Part shown: positions 3,254 to 9,441 of the stretch, piece by piece
Layout: every line of letters begins with the position of its first letter
Position numbering within the stretch: the first letter of the stretch is position 1
Assembly: GCA_025774865.1 (NCBI GenBank)
Contig: JALGZO010000331.1
Span: 1-9,441 of the forward strand
Source of the DNA: a bacterium
GTDB lineage: Bacteria > ARS69
DNA: 9,441 bases
Direction: 5' to 3'
The notes under the pieces: generated by a model
What the model saw: the letters and a program-made list of their open reading frames with translations, nothing else
Databases searched by the model: none
Told to the model about the DNA's origin: nothing
Translations under genes and position numbers: made by a program

Positions 3254-3341
3254 GCCCTGATGAATACCGGGGTTGAAGGGACTTCCGGCGCTTGGGATCA
3301 GCCTCTTCGGTGAACGACTCACGATAGACTGCCAATTGTCG

Positions 3342-5075
3342 ATGAACCCTCCTTCGCCCCTTCGCTACTCGAACCCCATGCACGGCGACGTGTGCGCCGG
3401 GATTCTCGAGTGTGCCGGTCGGGGCTTGCTCCGCCAGGATTTCTTGAGCGAAGTCACCCAACGGATTCGCGACTGGTGCCGGTGCGACGCCGTCGAGGTC
3501 CGAATGGTCGCGCGACGGAAGCTCTGGTGTGCCGAGGCTTCGGAAGAAGGAGAGCCGCGATGTGAGATGGTGCCTGGGCGGCGAAGCGACTCGGGAAGGA
3601 CGCTCTCGTGCCGAGATGCCGATGTCGACCTGGAGGACCTCTGCGAGGAAATCGTCGAGCGCCGAGTCGATCTGTCCCTGCCGTGGTTCACCGGGGCGGG
3701 AACCTTCTGGACGGGGGATACCCACGAGACGTTCCAGCCGAAACCGACAGGTGGCGGCGGGAGCTGCTCTCTTGCCGACGGACACTTTCGATCCCTCGTG
3801 ATCACTCCGTACGAGCTCGAGGACGGTGGCGCGGGCCTCGTCATCCTGAAGAGCAGGCAGCGGAATCACTTCCTTCCGGATCAGATCGGGTCCTATGAGC
3901 ACGTAGCGAAGATTCTCGGGGTTGCGGCCAAGCAGCGCCGCGCGCAGCTCGCCCTGCGGGAGCGGGTGAAGGAGCTGACCTGTCTCTATGGCATCACGAG
4001 GATCGCCGCGCGGCCTGGCGTCACGCTCGAGCAGATCCTGCAGACGGCCACCGAGCTCATCCCGAAGGGCTGCCTCCACGAAGATCTCGCTTCCGCGCAG
4101 ATCGTTTTCGACGATCGTTCGTTCGCCAGTAGATCGTTCGAAGATAGCCCCCACACTCACACCCAGGACATCACCGTCAACGGAAGCAAGCGAGGGACGA
4201 TCAAGGTCGCTTACGCCACGGATCTCCCCGAGCTGGACGTGGGACCGTTTACCAAAGAAGAGCTGGATCTGATCGAGGTCGTGGCCGGAGAACTCACGCT
4301 CGTCATCGATGCCCGGGAGATCGAAGAGAAACGAAACTCCCTGGAGGAGCAGCTCCGGCACGCGGACCGACTCGCCACCATCGGGCAGCTAGCTGCGGGC
4401 GTGGCGCACGAACTGAACGAACCGCTCGTGACCATCCTCGGTCGTGCGCAGCTTGCCCAGAAGGTGTCCGGGCTTCACGAGCAGGCGAAGACCGACCTCG
4501 ACGGAATCGTCGCCGCCTCCCTGCACGCGAGAGACGTCATCAGCAAGCTCAAGCTGTTCGCCCGGCGCGCGCCCGCCCGGAAAGTGGAGTCGGATCTGAA
4601 TGAAGTGGTGCGCGACGGCCTCGCTCTATTGGAAGAACACGTGGAGAAGGCGGGCATCACATTGGAGACGAGGCTCGATCCCGAGCTTCCGATCGTCGTG
4701 GCCGACCGGGGCCAACTGCACCAGGTGCTGATCAATCTCGTCGTGAACGCGCTGCAGGCGACACCACCCGGCGGGCGAATCGTCGTCCAGACGGAGCACG
4801 GTGGGGGAGCCATCGCGCTCGTCGTCGAAGACACCGGGAGCGGTATGACCGAGGAGACGCTCAAGCAGATCTTCACACCGTTCTTCACGACGAAGGATGC
4901 AGACGGGGGAACCGGCCTGGGACTGGCTGTCGTCCACGGGATCGTGAGCGCTCATGGGGGCCGAATCCGCGTGAAGAGCGAGGTCGGCGAAGGCTCGCGC
5001 TTCGTGGTCCGGCTGCCCCGGACCTCCCCGGAGCAGGCCGAACAGTCAGGAGTGGGTGACCTTGCCAAGGGATGA
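3342..5075 (+). CDS. Soluble sensor histidine kinase, two GAF-like domains (NtrB-like output)
   Basis: This is a 577-residue protein if it starts at ATG 3342. It should autophosphorylate and pass phosphate to the regulator encoded next to it. Numbered from that start, residues 30-200 and 205-325 look like two GAF-type sensory regions, the second opening with RVKELTCLYG. A helical linker (about 325-345) and a HisKA domain follow, with H-box AHELNEPL and phosphoacceptor His356 (codon 4407-4409). The HATPase domain shows the N-box NLVVNALQA (Asn469), G1 DTGSGM (Asp497), an F-box (IFTPFFTTK) and G2 GGTGLGL (522-528). No membrane helix or signal peptide is visible, so the signal should be cytoplasmic. 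The first sensory region is Cys-rich (46, 48, 63, 74, 90, 101, 142). The start is uncertain: TTG 3273 and ATG 3378 are in frame, and none of the three has a clear ribosome binding site. The 3' end overlaps the regulator gene by 20 bp. Confidence 0.9.
   Translation: MNPPSPLRYSNPMHGDVCAGILECAGRGLLRQDFLSEVTQRIRDWCRCDAVEVRMVARRKLWCAEASEEGEPRCEMVPGRRSDSGRTLSCRDADVDLEDLCEEIVERRVDLSLPWFTGAGTFWTGDTHETFQPKPTGGGGSCSLADGHFRSLVITPYELEDGGAGLVILKSRQRNHFLPDQIGSYEHVAKILGVAAKQRRAQLALRERVKELTCLYGITRIAARPGVTLEQILQTATELIPKGCLHEDLASAQIVFDDRSFASRSFEDSPHTHTQDITVNGSKRGTIKVAYATDLPELDVGPFTKEELDLIEVVAGELTLVIDAREIEEKRNSLEEQLRHADRLATIGQLAAGVAHELNEPLVTILGRAQLAQKVSGLHEQAKTDLDGIVAASLHARDVISKLKLFARRAPARKVESDLNEVVRDGLALLEEHVEKAGITLETRLDPELPIVVADRGQLHQVLINLVVNALQATPPGGRIVVQTEHGGGAIALVVEDTGSGMTEETLKQIFTPFFTTKDADGGTGLGLAVVHGIVSAHGGRIRVKSEVGEGSRFVVRLPRTSPEQAEQSGVGDLAKG
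5048..5052 (+). promoter_or_regulatory. Ribosome binding site inside the kinase gene for the response regulator
   Basis: AGGAG lies 3 bases before GTG 5056 and 9 bases before the in-frame TTG 5062. The GTG is the usual call, but the spacing favours the TTG, so the true start may be two codons later. Either way the regulator begins inside the kinase coding sequence, which suggests translational coupling. Confidence 0.5.
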
Positions 5076-6411
5076 GGCTTCGATTCTCATCGTCGACGAC
5101 GTCGCCGATACACGCGAGGTATTGCAGCGGTGTCTCACATCCGCGGGATACCGGGTCCATACGGCATCCGGGGTCGTGCCGGCGATCGAATCCCTCGAGA
5201 AGACGCCCGTCGACCTCGTCATCACGGACCTTCGGATGCCTGAAATGAGCGGACTGAGCCTCGTTCGCTACCTTCGCGAGAACATGAAAGAGACCGAGGT
5301 CATGATGATCACGGGCTACGCGACCGTCGAAGGGGCCGTGGAGGCTGTGAAGACGGGGGCCGAGGAGTATCTGGCGAAACCGTTCACGGAGGACGAGCTG
5401 ACCGCCGCCGTCGGACGTGCGCTCGAAAAACGGCGCGTGCGTCGTCTGGCCCAGCAGGCCCCGGAGAACGTGGCTCCACCCTCCGGGATGATCGGAGAGT
5501 CGGCCGCGATGCAGGTCGTACTCCGCGAGATCAACAAGGCGGCCACGACGGATGCCACCGTCCTGATCACCGGCGAGAGCGGCACCGGCAAAGAGCTCGT
5601 CGGTCGCGCGATCCACTATCAGAGCGGCCGCGCCTCGGCGCCGTTCGTACCCATCAACTGCGGTGCCATTCCCGGCGAGCTCGTCGAGAGCGAGCTCTTC
5701 GGCCATACGAAAGGAGCCTTCACCGGTGCCACCGCGATCCGCAACGGTTTCTTCCAGGCGGCGGACGGCGGCAGCATCTTCCTCGATGAAATCGGCGACA
5801 CGAGTCCATCGACTCAGGTGAAGCTCCTGCGCGTGCTGGAGGACCAGGAAGTGTACATGGTCGGATCTTCGCAGCCGACTCGGGTCGACGTTCGCGTACT
5901 GGCTTCAACGAACAAGGATCTGTCGTCGCTCCTCAAAAAGGGAACGTTCCGCGAGGATCTCTTCTTTCGACTGAGCGTCATCACGATCGTTCTACCGCCG
6001 CTGAGAGAGCGGAAGGACGACATCTTGCTCCTCGTCACGCATTTCGCGCGCAAGTTGGCCGGCGAGGCGGAGCGGCCGCCCCCCGAGTTCACGGACCGTG
6101 CGCTGCAGGTCTTCCGGAGGTACGCCTGGCCGGGGAACGTCCGGGAGCTGCTGAATCTCCTCCGACGTCTCGTCGTCATGCAAGAAGACTCTCGACCCAT
6201 CGACGTCCCGGATCTCCCGCGGCACATGCGCTTCTCCGTGAACCGCGGTCTCGGACCGCTTCGAACGCTGGCCGAGATCGAGGCCGATCACATTCGGAAC
6301 GTCCTCGACAGCGTCCAGGGGAACAAGACCCAGGCCGCGAAGATGCTCGGCATCGATCGGAAGACTCTCCGAGAGAGACTCAAGAGCATCGAGACGTCGC
6401 CGGGCGAGTAG
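5056..6411 (+). CDS. NtrC-family sigma-54-dependent response regulator
   Basis: This 451-residue enhancer-binding protein, when phosphorylated by the upstream kinase, should use ATP to open sigma-54 promoters. The receiver domain (about 8-120) has acidic pair Asp14/Asp15, phosphoacceptor Asp58 (codon 5227-5229, TDLRMPEMSG), Thr86 and Lys108. The AAA+ domain (about 145-380) has Walker A GESGTGKE (173-180), an intact GAFTGA loop (220-225) that contacts sigma-54, Walker B FLDEIGD (Asp244/Glu245), an arginine-finger region FREDLFFR (298-305) and sensor II WPGNVREL. The C-terminus is a Fis-type helix-turn-helix (NKTQAAKMLGIDRKTLRERL, 423-442). All residues needed for activity seem present and the length is normal. 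An obvious target is the sigma-54 promoter directly downstream. The signal, and hence the closest named subfamily, cannot be read from the sequence. Confidence 0.95.
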   Translation: MTLPRDEASILIVDDVADTREVLQRCLTSAGYRVHTASGVVPAIESLEKTPVDLVITDLRMPEMSGLSLVRYLRENMKETEVMMITGYATVEGAVEAVKTGAEEYLAKPFTEDELTAAVGRALEKRRVRRLAQQAPENVAPPSGMIGESAAMQVVLREINKAATTDATVLITGESGTGKELVGRAIHYQSGRASAPFVPINCGAIPGELVESELFGHTKGAFTGATAIRNGFFQAADGGSIFLDEIGDTSPSTQVKLLRVLEDQEVYMVGSSQPTRVDVRVLASTNKDLSSLLKKGTFREDLFFRLSVITIVLPPLRERKDDILLLVTHFARKLAGEAERPPPEFTDRALQVFRRYAWPGNVRELLNLLRRLVVMQEDSRPIDVPDLPRHMRFSVNRGLGPLRTLAEIEADHIRNVLDSVQGNKTQAAKMLGIDRKTLRERLKSIETSPGE

Positions 6412-6528: not shown

Positions 6529-6547
6529 ATTGTCTGTCAATCGCTTG
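6529..6547 (+). promoter_or_regulatory. Candidate activator dyad (UAS) overlapping an IHF-like site
   Basis: ATTGTCTGTCAAT (6529-6541) is a dyad, ATTG-N5-CAAT, with one further inner pair matching. Its centre is about 78 bases upstream of the start predicted for the sigma-54 promoter, a usual distance for an enhancer-binding protein. The overlapping 6535-6547 matches the IHF consensus WATCAANNNNTTR at eight of nine defined positions (G instead of A at position 2). Both readings suit a sigma-54 promoter. Only one copy was found, whereas activator sites often occur in pairs, so this remains a candidate. Confidence 0.35.
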
Positions 6548-6586: not shown

Positions 6587-6602
6587 TGGCGCGAACATTG
6601 CT
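6587..6602 (+). promoter_or_regulatory. Sigma-54 (-24/-12) promoter of the GcvH-like / Fe-S / NrfD operon
   Basis: TGGCGCGAACATTGCT matches the sigma-54 consensus TGGCACG-N4-TTGCT with one mismatch (G for A). The invariant GG (6588-6589) and GC (6600-6601) have the required spacing. Transcription should begin near 6613, giving a 40-base leader before ATG 6653. It lies directly after a gene for a sigma-54 activator with an intact GAFTGA loop, which supports the call independently. Confidence 0.85.
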
Positions 6603-6652: not shown

Positions 6653-7375
6653 ATGGTCGCGTTGATTGCACTTTCAGTCGTCCTGATATTCCTGAGCGTG
6701 GACTACTTCGTGCAGTGGAAGCGGGCTTCCCACGCTGATGAAGCGGAGACGGAAATCGCGCCCGTCGTCGACGTCCGCTGGCACCTCGCGCTGTCGCCCC
6801 CGCGATCCCCGGCCGGAGTGTACTTCGCGCCAGGGCACACCTGGGCGTACCTCCTGCCCTCGGGGAACATTCGTGTCGGCTTGACCGATTTCGCTCGATC
6901 CATCATGGGCTCCGTGGATGAGGTCGAGCCGCGCACGCGGACCACCGAGCTCCGCCGGGGTGACCCGCTCTTGCGAATGCGCCGCGGAAAACACACCGCG
7001 ACCTTCCACTCGCCGATCGACGGAACGATCGAGCGCGTCAATCTCGGGTTTCTCGGGCCGGACGCCGCTCGCCCGAACGAACCATACACGTCCTCGTGGA
7101 TCTTCGAGATGCGGCCCCAGAACACATCCGACATTCCGAAGACGATGTTTCTCGGGGAGGCCGCCCGGAGCTGGCTCAAACAGGAGGTCGAACGATTGAG
7201 GGTCTTCCTCGCGACGACTCTCCCAGAGCCTCACGGGGTCGGCGTCACGATGCAGGATGGCGGTCTGCCGGACTGGGGAGCCGTCGATTCCTTCACGGAT
7301 ACCGACTGGCAGCGGTTCCAGGACCGGTTCTTCGGCAAGATGCACGCGCCCACGGCGTCTGCCCAACAGTCGTAG
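6653..7375 (+). CDS. Membrane-anchored GcvH-like (lipoyl-domain-like) protein
   Basis: This 240-residue protein begins with one hydrophobic helix (about 2-20) followed by QWKR, predicting the rest in the cytoplasm. Residues 55-175 follow the glycine-cleavage H-protein pattern in order: GHTW (61-64) for the usual H-E-W, VGLTDFARSIMG (75-86) for VGITDYAQ-x2-LG, SPIDGTIERVN (120-130) for SPVSGEV-x-EVN, and SSWIFEMRP (147-155) for the GWL-x-K-P stretch. Lys113 (AAA, 6989-6991) lies eight residues before Pro121, as the lipoyl lysine does in GcvH. The usual ESVKA around it reads RRGKH here, so lipoylation is plausible but unproven. Ordinary GcvH is soluble and about 130 residues. This one has an N-terminal anchor and about 65 extra C-terminal residues, and no glycine-cleavage gene is nearby. 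AGGGAGAG sits just before the ATG. It is the first gene after the sigma-54 promoter, 38 bp before the Fe-S gene, and may be a carrier or structural subunit of that complex. Confidence 0.82.
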   Translation: MVALIALSVVLIFLSVDYFVQWKRASHADEAETEIAPVVDVRWHLALSPPRSPAGVYFAPGHTWAYLLPSGNIRVGLTDFARSIMGSVDEVEPRTRTTELRRGDPLLRMRRGKHTATFHSPIDGTIERVNLGFLGPDAARPNEPYTSSWIFEMRPQNTSDIPKTMFLGEAARSWLKQEVERLRVFLATTLPEPHGVGVTMQDGGLPDWGAVDSFTDTDWQRFQDRFFGKMHAPTASAQQS

Positions 7376-7413: not shown

Positions 7414-8208
7414 ATGTCCGCAGCGATTCTCACCGACCTCACGAAGTGCGTGGGTTGCAGCGCCTGCGTGCTGGCGTGCGAGCAGATCAACGGCCTGCCC
7501 GCAGACGATCGGCCACCGAAGCTCTCGGAAGCCGCCTGGACCATCATCCGCGACCATCGAGGTGTCACCATCAGGCAACACTGCATGCACTGCCTGGATC
7601 CGACATGTGCCTCGGTGTGTCCGGTGAACGCACTGCAAAAGACACCGGAAGGCCCCGTCATTTACGAGGAGAGCCGCTGCATCGGGTGCCGGTATTGCAT
7701 GCTGGCATGTCCGTTCAGCATTCCGACGTACGAGTGGCAGAGCGCGCACCCCAAGGTGCGCAAGTGCGGCATGTGCTTCGACAAGCGCGTCCGAGAGGGT
7801 GGCCAGCCAGCCTGCACGTCCGTGTGCCCGACCGGAGCCACGACGTTCGGAGATCGGGACGCGCTCGTCCGAGAGGCGCACCGCCGGATCGAGACGGATC
7901 CCGATCGATACGTTGACCACATCTACGGCCTCGAAGAAGTCGGCGGAACATCGGTGCTGTATCTCTCCGGGGTGCCGTTCGCAGACCTGGGCTTCCCCAC
8001 GAACCTCGATACCAAACCTTATCCGAAGCTGACCTGGGACATTCTCTCCGAGATCCCGAATGTCGTCGGAATCGGGGGCGTCGCGCTGGCGGGCGTCTAC
8101 TGGGTGATCAACCGACGAATGATGATGGAGCGACTGAGCCTCGAAGACGCGGCCAACGAGGAGGTCGTGGAGGAATTGTCGGGTCCCGAGAATGGGGGTG
8201 GATCGTGA
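7414..8208 (+). CDS. Electron-transfer protein with four [4Fe-4S] motifs and C-terminal membrane anchor (HybA/NrfC/DmsB-like)
   Basis: This 264-residue protein should wire a membrane quinone module to a redox partner. It has sixteen Cys in four groups: 12/15/18/22, 57/60/65/69, 89/92/95/99 and 118/121/134/138. Pairing across groups, as in the DmsB/NrfC/HybA family, gives four [4Fe-4S] clusters. The second and fourth groups carry the longer C-x4-C and C-x12-C spacings of that family. One hydrophobic helix (about 215-233) followed by NRR near the C-terminus resembles the anchor of HybA. HybA has an N-terminal Tat signal; this protein does not, and the cluster motif starts at residue 12. ATG 7414 is chosen because GGGAGAGG (7398-7405) lies 8 bases upstream; GTG 7390 is a weaker alternative. 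The 3' end overlaps the next start by 4 bp (GTGA), so the two are probably translated together. Close names such as HybA are by architecture only. Confidence 0.92.
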   Translation: MSAAILTDLTKCVGCSACVLACEQINGLPADDRPPKLSEAAWTIIRDHRGVTIRQHCMHCLDPTCASVCPVNALQKTPEGPVIYEESRCIGCRYCMLACPFSIPTYEWQSAHPKVRKCGMCFDKRVREGGQPACTSVCPTGATTFGDRDALVREAHRRIETDPDRYVDHIYGLEEVGGTSVLYLSGVPFADLGFPTNLDTKPYPKLTWDILSEIPNVVGIGGVALAGVYWVINRRMMMERLSLEDAANEEVVEELSGPENGGGS

Positions 8209-9441
8209 GTCGATTCTGGAAAACGGTCTTCTGGATCCTCTCCGCGTCCGTCATCGTTTCCGCCTACGTTCGATTCCGCGACGGCCTCGGCGCTGCGACG
8301 AACCTCACGGACGAGTTTCCATGGGGCCTTTGGATCGGTTTCGACATCCTCGTGGGAGTCGGCCTCGCGGCCGGAGGATTCGTCATCGCCGCGACGGTGC
8401 ACATCTTCCAGATCAAGAGATTCGAGCCCCTGAGTCGCCCTGTGATCTTGACGGCGTTCCTGGGATACCTGCTCGTCATCTTCGCCCTGATGTTCGACAT
8501 CGGTCGCCCTTACCGAATCTGGCATCCCCTGGTGATGGGCAATCCGCACTCGGTGATGTTCGAAGTCGCCATGTGCGTCATGCTGTACACGATGGTCCTG
8601 GCGCTCGAGTTCAGTCCACTCGTGCTGTCGCGACTGAAGCTCAAGGCACCGGTCCGGTTCATTCACGCAATCTATCTGCCGCTCGTGGTCATCGGAGTGC
8701 TGCTGTCGACACTTCATCAATCATCCCTGGGAACGCTCTTCGTCATCGTGCCGAACAAGCTGCACGCGCTTTGGTACACGTCGCTCTTGCCCGTGTTCTT
8801 CTTCCTTTCCGCGATCGCGGGGGGCCTGGCGATGGTGATCATCGAGTCGTTCCTGAGCTATCGAGCGTTCGGGAAACGTCTCGAGCAGGATCTCCTCGAG
8901 GAGGTCGCCCGGATCGTCGTGGTGATTCTCGCCGTCGTCTTCGTCTGGAGAGCGAGTGACCTGAGCGGGAGGGGAGCGCTGCCTCTGGCGTTTCAGGTTA
9001 CGCCCGAGAGCGTCATGTTCTGGGGCGAGATGGGCCTCGGGGTGATTCTGCCGATGATCCTGTTCATGATCCCGAGAGTTCGGGCGAGGCAAGGCGGTCT
9101 GTTCTTTGCGGCGATGCTCACGATCATGGGGTTCATCATCAATCGTCTGAACATCTCCGTCACGGGCTTCGTGCGATCGGCCGGGGTCGACTACATTCCG
9201 TCGTTGATCGAGTTCGCCGTCACGGTCGGTATCGTCGCACTCGGTTTCGCACTGTTCGGACTTGCGGTTCAACATCTCGACGTGTTCGGCCCCAAGCAGG
9301 GCGGACGGCCCGGTGCCCAGCCTCCCCGAGTGGTCCCCGCCAGGCTGCGCGCGATCCCGGGGAAGGCCTTGGTGGGCCTGTGGGGGTTTCTCCTCGTCGG
9401 CTTCGTCCTACTCGGCTTCACCATGAGGGGACCGAATGAGG
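8205..9441 (+). CDS. HybB/NrfD-family quinone-interacting membrane subunit (3' end cut by window edge)
   Basis: The frame is open from GTG 8205 to the right edge (412 residues, no stop). The product is a polytopic inner-membrane protein of the NrfD/PsrC superfamily, which exchanges electrons with the quinone pool without haem. About ten hydrophobic helices are visible (near 5-22, 39-68, 80-100, 115-136, 152-171, 186-214, 234-249, 270-290, 298-318 and 330-358), plus an eleventh near 390-407. FPWGLWIGFD (38-47), FDIGRP (97-102), INRLNISVTGF (312-322) and YIPSLIEFAVT (330-340) are typical of the HybB branch. HybB itself has about 390 residues and ten helices, so the extra helix after a Pro/Arg-rich loop (361-389) is a variation. 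The start overlaps the Fe-S gene stop by 4 bp and GGGGGTGG lies just upstream. With the Fe-S protein it forms the standard two-subunit electron-transfer module. Confidence 0.9.
   Translation, partial: MSRFWKTVFWILSASVIVSAYVRFRDGLGAATNLTDEFPWGLWIGFDILVGVGLAAGGFVIAATVHIFQIKRFEPLSRPVILTAFLGYLLVIFALMFDIGRPYRIWHPLVMGNPHSVMFEVAMCVMLYTMVLALEFSPLVLSRLKLKAPVRFIHAIYLPLVVIGVLLSTLHQSSLGTLFVIVPNKLHALWYTSLLPVFFFLSAIAGGLAMVIIESFLSYRAFGKRLEQDLLEEVARIVVVILAVVFVWRASDLSGRGALPLAFQVTPESVMFWGEMGLGVILPMILFMIPRVRARQGGLFFAAMLTIMGFIINRLNISVTGFVRSAGVDYIPSLIEFAVTVGIVALGFALFGLAVQHLDVFGPKQGGRPGAQPPRVVPARLRAIPGKALVGLWGFLLVGFVLLGFTMRGPNE

What the first reader, a model, noticed from the sequence alone, without database searches (positions are those of the whole stretch)
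6653..7375. A membrane-tethered GcvH-like protein leading an Fe-S / NrfD operon
The H-protein fold signatures run in order and a lysine (Lys113) sits exactly at the lipoylation position, yet the protein has a membrane anchor and a C-terminal extension and sits among electron-transfer genes with no gcvP or gcvT. A lipoyl group can carry two electrons and protons between active sites, so a swinging-arm carrier serving a quinone complex is conceivable. This is the best candidate here for a poorly described system.
Basis: partly seen in the sequence, partly recalled or inferred. Interest (0 to 1): 0.78.

Follow-up and report, generated by a model that had tools for sequence, protein, structure and literature searches.

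The report
Lipoyl-less H-protein subunit of redox module
The protein has the shape of the glycine-cleavage H-protein but its family has lost the lysine that carries the lipoyl arm; it belongs to a widespread gene module, which I found in no paper, pairing a membrane electron-transfer complex with its own sensor kinase and sigma-54 switch.

Summary
A swinging lipoyl arm is therefore unlikely. The gene belongs to a conserved cassette found under at least 15 phylum-level names: one to three GcvH-like proteins, HybA, HybB/NrfD, a histidine kinase (usually with a c-heme motif), a GAFTGA sigma-54 regulator and an M54 peptidase, without a recurrent catalytic subunit. Elsewhere GcvH-like domains are fused to phospho-receiver domains. 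A near-perfect -24/-12 sigma-54 promoter lies 50 bp upstream of the start codon, and such sites are enriched before the cassette elsewhere (22/104 against 5/300). Best reading: a non-lipoylated cytosolic docking/regulatory subunit of a sigma-54-controlled, quinone-linked HybAB-type complex. I found no description in the searched library.

The parts
3273..5075 (+). Sensor histidine kinase, predicted soluble, no CXXCH heme motif, Cys-rich N-terminal sensor region (12 Cys); HisKA + HATPase_c; H-box HELNEP
   Evidence: Pfam HATPase_c 8e-29, HisKA 7e-8; motif scan
5056..6411 (+). NtrC-type sigma-54-dependent response regulator (REC, AAA+ with GAFTGA at residue 220, Walker A GESGTGKE, Fis HTH); overlaps the kinase gene by 20 bp
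   Evidence: Pfam Sigma54_activat 1e-67, Response_reg 2e-29, HTH_8 3e-14; motifs
6587..6602 (+). Candidate sigma-54 promoter TGGCGCG-AACA-TTGCT (11 of 12 consensus positions), 50 bp upstream of the GcvH-like start codon; the only site scoring 10 or more in the whole window on either strand
   Evidence: enriched before the same cassette in other genomes (22/104 against 5/300, p=4.5e-10); rpoN present in the genome
6653..7375 (+). Membrane-anchored GcvH-like protein, 240 aa, family with a C-terminal DGG motif
6653..6742 (+). N-terminal anchor helix (residues 1-30); positive charges after it suggest the domain is cytosolic
   Evidence: AlphaFold helix 2-30; same start MV...F..VD in orthologues
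6989..6991 (+). Codon of Lys113 at the lipoyl position; not conserved in the family
7256..7264 (+). D202-G203-G204, the most conserved motif outside the H-protein domain (94-98% of members)
7414..8208 (+). HybA/HmcB-like ferredoxin with 16 Cys (four [4Fe-4S] sites) and a predicted C-terminal membrane helix; no twin-arginine signal in this copy
   Evidence: NCBIfam HmcB 2.5e-77, HybA 7.5e-64, below cut-offs
8205..9441 (+). HybB/HmcC-like NrfD-family membrane subunit, cut by the contig end; proton-path residues R89, Y99, E148, H184 of E. coli HybB conserved as R78, Y88, E135, H171
   Evidence: Pfam NrfD 1.2e-27; HmcC 1.3e-91; alignment with E. coli HybB

Best explanation
The protein is a non-lipoylated descendant of the glycine-cleavage H-protein, kept as a membrane-tethered structural and regulatory subunit facing the cytosol. 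It docks onto a HybA-HybB (NrfD-type) complex that exchanges electrons with the quinone pool, probably coupled to ion movement. The adjacent kinase and sigma-54 activator sense a redox or respiratory state and switch on the gcvH-like/hybA/hybB operon from the -24/-12 promoter at 6587. Shown: fold, loss of the lipoyl lysine in the family, gene linkage across phyla, intact activator motifs, enriched sigma-54 sites, conserved HybB channel residues, GcvH-like domains fused to receiver domains elsewhere. Inferred: physical docking to HybAB, cytosolic side, quinone activity, promoter use, and what the kinase senses.
For: Lys column K in 18/216 while W64, G76, P121, G124, N130 and D202-G203-G204 are 94-100% conserved, against K in 19/22 true GcvH. 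H-protein fold, Z 15.3. Of 35 named loci with 5 kb on both sides, HybB is present in 32, HybA in 31, sigma-54 regulator in 31, kinase in 26, M54 in 25; these come from at least 15 phylum-level names. GcvH-like domains fused to receiver domains with intact phospho-Asp: 12 proteins in 6 loci, near HybA and HybB. Sigma-54 sites before the cassette: 22/104 against 5/300 other genes and 16/2080 shuffles (p=4.5e-10). 59/64 long regulators carry GAFTGA; RpoN in the own genome. HybB proton-path residues conserved (E. coli mutant data as cited in PMC8076601). 113 of 135 family members with an N-terminal helix have the more positive side after it.
Against: No direct evidence of a physical complex. One apparent HybB-GcvH fusion ORF (L058 1869-3809) looks frameshifted at its end and may be an assembly error. 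A kinase beside an operon need not sense that operon's own complex. The window copy does carry a Lys at the right place. This HybA lacks a Tat signal whereas others have one, so the sidedness of the complex varies and is unexplained.
Confidence: 0.6

Rival explanations
1. Lipoyl swinging-arm carrier: Lys113 is lipoylated and the arm shuttles electrons between the HybA clusters and another site.
For: Lys113 aligns with the lipoyl Lys and lies on the correct beta-turn of an H-protein fold; the genome has a true GcvH, so lipoylation enzymes are likely.
Against: Position is K in 18/216 relatives, otherwise G, S, D, N and others. Nearest orthologue has D; only 4 of 23 close W-type members have K. 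The paralogues in the same genome have none. The Glu three residues before the lipoyl Lys in the true GcvH is Arg here.
Confidence: 0.07
2. Dedicated redox-sensing complex: HybA/HybB are the input stage of the two-component system, reading the quinone pool and passing electrons or a shape change to the (usually heme-bearing) kinase through the GcvH-like subunits, so the assembly is a sensor and not a respiratory enzyme.
For: Constant pairing with HK + sigma-54 regulator and no recurrent catalytic gene; 69/82 kinases have a CXXCH motif, and those inspected have a second CX3-4CH; receiver-GcvH fusions.
Against: HybB keeps the proton-path residues; sigma-54 sites suggest the complex is a target of the system; the window kinase has no heme motif; multiheme cytochrome genes flank 22/98 loci, as expected for a respiratory Hmc/Nhc-type complex.
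Confidence: 0.22
3. The GcvH-like proteins are assembly or maturation factors for HybA/HybB and not subunits of the mature complex.
For: Multiple copies per operon; a separate Cys-motif subtype without an obvious anchor.
Against: Most copies are membrane-anchored (135/203) and several types coexist with a recurrent gene order around hybA-hybB; receiver fusions do not suit a chaperone.
Confidence: 0.1

Closest known systems
Glycine cleavage H-protein (GcvH, PF01597)
   Same: Fold over residues 50-180, H-x-W and S-P-x-x-G signatures, Lys at the lipoyl position in this copy
   Different: Lipoyl Lys not conserved in the family; membrane anchor; C-terminal helices with DGG motif; no gcvP/gcvT; below curated gcvH cut-offs
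Hmc / Nhc transmembrane redox complexes of sulfate reducers (HmcB, HmcC; NhcB, NhcC)
   Same: Hmc gives the best curated family for both downstream genes (HmcB 260 bits, HmcC 308 bits); multiheme cytochromes flank some loci; no enzyme active-site subunit needed (own knowledge)
   Different: Below the equivalog cut-offs; no HmcA-like 16-heme gene in the window; added GcvH-like subunits, M54 peptidase, sigma-54 two-component pair
E. coli hydrogenase-2 HybA-HybB
   Same: Four-cluster ferredoxin plus NrfD-type membrane subunit, conserved proton-path residues
   Different: No hydrogenase genes in the window; HybA here has no Tat signal
LbpA, lipoate-binding protein of the sHdr sulfur oxidation pathway
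   Same: GcvH-like protein tied to electron transfer and not to glycine cleavage (own knowledge)
   Different: LbpA carries a conserved lipoylated Lys and sits with sHdr genes (own knowledge); neither holds here
GcvH-L of the SirTM/macrodomain operon (5a35)
   Same: H-protein fold (Z 11.1)
   Different: GcvH-L is a lipoylated ADP-ribosylation target in an operon with SirTM and a macrodomain protein (own knowledge); no such gene among the window genes tested

Membership tests
Glycine cleavage H-protein (GcvH) | H-protein fold | tested here: met
   VIA-align Z 15.3 over 127 residues to 3a8i_E; Foldseek 1.8e-9 to 1onl
Glycine cleavage H-protein (GcvH) | Conserved lipoyl lysine across orthologues | tested here: not met
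   K in 18/216 relatives; control true GcvH 19/22
Glycine cleavage H-protein (GcvH) | Score above curated gcvH equivalog cut-off | tested here: not met
   TIGR00527 39.3 against 115.85; NF002270 49 against 117
Glycine cleavage H-protein (GcvH) | Lipoylation of the protein | not testable with these tools
   needs mass spectrometry
LbpA (sHdr pathway) | Conserved lipoyl Lys | tested here: not met
LbpA (sHdr pathway) | Linkage to sHdr (hdrABC-like) genes | tested here: not met
   no such gene among the window genes tested; no widely recurrent unannotated neighbour family other than multiheme cytochromes
HybAB / HmcBC NrfD-type redox complexes | Four-cluster HybA-type ferredoxin plus NrfD-family membrane subunit | tested here: met
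HybAB / HmcBC NrfD-type redox complexes | Functional residues of HybB (R89, Y99, E148, H184) | tested here: met
   residue list from PMC8076601
HybAB / HmcBC NrfD-type redox complexes | Curated HmcB/HmcC or HybA/HybB equivalog score | tested here: not met
   260/420, 308/550, 216/263, 277/450 bits (the window HybB is cut by the contig end)
HybAB / HmcBC NrfD-type redox complexes | Partner catalytic or multiheme subunit in the operon | tested here: inconclusive
   none in the window, whose contig ends inside hybB; multiheme genes near 22/98 relatives
NtrC-family sigma-54 activator (5056-6411) | REC + AAA+ with GAFTGA + Fis HTH | tested here: met

The most novel reading that the evidence does not exclude
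A lipoyl-less H-protein fold has become a signalling and docking domain: phosphorylated receiver-GcvH proteins or membrane-tethered GcvH subunits dock on a HybAB quinone complex, making a phosphorylation-controlled or self-sensing redox complex that is spread across many phyla and also ties in the uncharacterised M54 peptidase.
Probability: 0.3. Interest if true: 0.82.

Novelty: new variant of a known kind. Interest (0 to 1): 0.6.

Why it matters
It points to a widely shared membrane electron-transfer module (about 18 of 145 sampled genomes; at least 15 phylum-level names) that the searched literature does not describe, and gives the H-protein fold a second career without its cofactor. The receiver-GcvH fusions and the constant kinase/sigma-54 pairing make a direct link between respiration and two-component signalling testable. 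It also gives the M54 peptidases of these bacteria a genomic context. Many GcvH annotations in such genomes are probably not glycine cleavage.

Tried and rejected
Lipoyl carrier: rejected as a family property by the Lys column. A correlation between HybA export (Tat) and kinase type: none seen; Tat-less HybA mostly co-occurs with heme kinases. Apparent HybB-GcvH fusion in L058: set aside as a possible frameshift. Joining the window's 3' end to another contig: no overlap found. Search with the broad alignment A1 failed for lack of conserved stretches; the narrower A2 worked. Searching more relatives around L102 was not possible. Paper searches for GcvH with HybA/HybB, lipoate-binding protein with NrfD, archaemetzincin with histidine kinase, GcvH-like with response regulator and DVU0260 gave nothing relevant; the NrfD-family review does not mention GcvH or glycine cleavage. 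A candidate activator site by repeats upstream of the promoter was inconclusive.

Full report
What is there. The window is a complete contig (G000:C334). After a kinase (3273-5075) and an NtrC-type sigma-54 regulator (5056-6411) come a 241-bp gap and three tightly packed genes: the GcvH-like protein (6653-7375), a HybA/HmcB-like ferredoxin (7414-8208) and a HybB/HmcC-like NrfD protein running off the contig end. The regulator carries GAFTGA at residue 220 and a Walker A motif, so it is a competent sigma-54 activator by sequence; the genome encodes RpoN. The only strong -24/-12 element in the window on either strand, TGGCGCGAACATTGCT at 6587-6602, lies 50 bp before the GcvH-like start codon.

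The protein. Pfam places residues 57-174 in GCV_H (3.2e-13) but the gcvH equivalog cut-offs are far off. The AlphaFold2 model from 70 relatives has mean pLDDT 83.5: a helix at 2-30, an H-protein domain, then two more helix regions. All top structural hits are H-proteins (Z 15.3, 127 aligned, 2.5 A). Lys113 aligns with the lipoyl Lys, on the turn between strands 105-111 and 114-119.

The lysine test. Five GCV_H genes occur in the genome: one true gcvH, the window copy, two adjacent on C67 and one on C583. C67 and C583 share their NrfD end sequence and appear to be one cluster, GcvC-GcvA-HybA-HybB-GcvB. None of the three keeps the lysine. In 216 family domains the column holds K 18 times, G 63, S 40, D 25, N 17. 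In 22 ordinary GcvH fetched in the same searches it is K 19 times (p=4e-15). Among the 23 closest sequences only four have K and the nearest (L102, 40% identity) has D. Scaffold residues W64, G76, P121, G124, N130 and a new D-G-G motif at 202-204 are 94-100% conserved. So the fold is under selection, the lipoyl site is not.

The module. A domain-wide sample found the long, DGG-type protein in about 18 of 145 genomes (my count from the match list). A scan of named genomes found 252 relatives; 80 loci were kept, from Nitrospinae, Schekmanbacteria, Rokubacteria, Deltaproteobacteria, Gemmatimonadota, Bacteroidetes, Ignavibacteria, KSB1, Acidobacteria, Planctomycetota, Krumholzibacteria, Eisenbacteria, Riflebacteria, Poribacteria and others. 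The same cassette recurs: GcvH-like (mostly one to three copies), HybA, HybB, kinase, sigma-54 regulator, M54 peptidase. With 5 kb on both sides, HybB is present in 32/35, HybA 31, regulator 31, kinase 26, M54 25. M54 genes are next to the kinase or regulator in 51/53 cases, and genomes with the cassette carry M54 more often (13/18 against 19/127, p=1e-6). 69/82 kinases have a CXXCH motif, and those inspected also have a second CX3-4CH; the window's kinase is an exception. Apart from multiheme cytochromes (22/98 loci) no other gene family recurs widely, so no enzymatic subunit is part of the core. This is also true of Hmc/Nhc-type complexes (own knowledge); Hmc is the nearest curated relative of the two downstream genes.

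Signalling link. In six loci the GcvH-like domain is fused behind a CheY-like receiver domain, as two tandem genes next to a kinase and near hybA-hybB; the phospho-acceptor Asp is intact in all. Sigma-54 sites scoring 10 or more of 12 occur before 22/104 cassettes against 5/300 other genes and 16/2080 shuffles (p=4.5e-10).

Electron-transfer side. HybA has 16 Cys for four clusters. HybB keeps the residues whose mutation impairs coupled hydrogen oxidation in E. coli HybB (R89, Y99, E148, H184, residue list from PMC8076601). Exported (Tat) and non-exported HybA versions exist; the window's has no Tat signal. The GcvH-like anchors are mostly followed by positive charges (113/135), which places the domain in the cytosol.

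Mechanism. Most likely the GcvH-like protein is a cofactor-free docking/regulatory subunit on the cytosolic face of a HybAB-type quinone complex whose expression is driven by the neighbouring kinase and sigma-54 regulator. The lipoyl-arm idea is unlikely (0.07). A true sensor complex is possible (0.22). Steps shown and inferred are marked in the Best explanation section.

Novelty. No paper found in the held library describes this combination; subscription papers were not searchable. I class it as a new variant of the NrfD-type redox complexes, with a so far unrecognised family of degenerate H-proteins.

Noticed in passing
L056 7486-9405, L061 9739-11742, L066 6040-8140, L082 5799-7895, L085 2516-4589, L088 5542-7807: Pairs of receiver-GcvH fusion proteins, encoded next to a (mostly heme) kinase and near HybA/HybB genes; a GCV_H domain as response-regulator output
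   Followed up: partly
L007 3878-5596, L049 3358-5004, L050 6128-7735 and most other loci: Histidine kinases with a sensor holding CXXCH plus a second CX3-4CH motif, possibly diheme
   Followed up: partly
L007 6950-7579 and most other loci: M54 peptidase (archaemetzincin, HExxHxxGxxHC) constantly beside the kinase/regulator pair; role unknown
   Followed up: partly
L007 2904-3653 (-), L059 9949-11058 (-), L068 4736-5527: A GcvH-like subtype, some members with an N-terminal Cys motif (e.g. KLCDxxFDCxxCPxD), possibly metal-binding
   Followed up: no
L159 154-4717 (own genome C677): A separate HybA/HybB pair with heme motifs in the HybB-like ORF, a 16-heme cytochrome and Rnf-like genes, without a GcvH-like gene in the part read
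   Followed up: no
6529-6541: ATTGTCTGTCAAT, an imperfect dyad upstream of the sigma-54 site, possible activator site; untested
   Followed up: no
L058 1869-3809 (-): Apparent in-frame HybB-GcvH fusion of 646 aa whose C-terminus looks frameshifted; may be an assembly error
   Followed up: partly
1108-2226: Class 3 lipase gene unrelated to the operon
   Followed up: no
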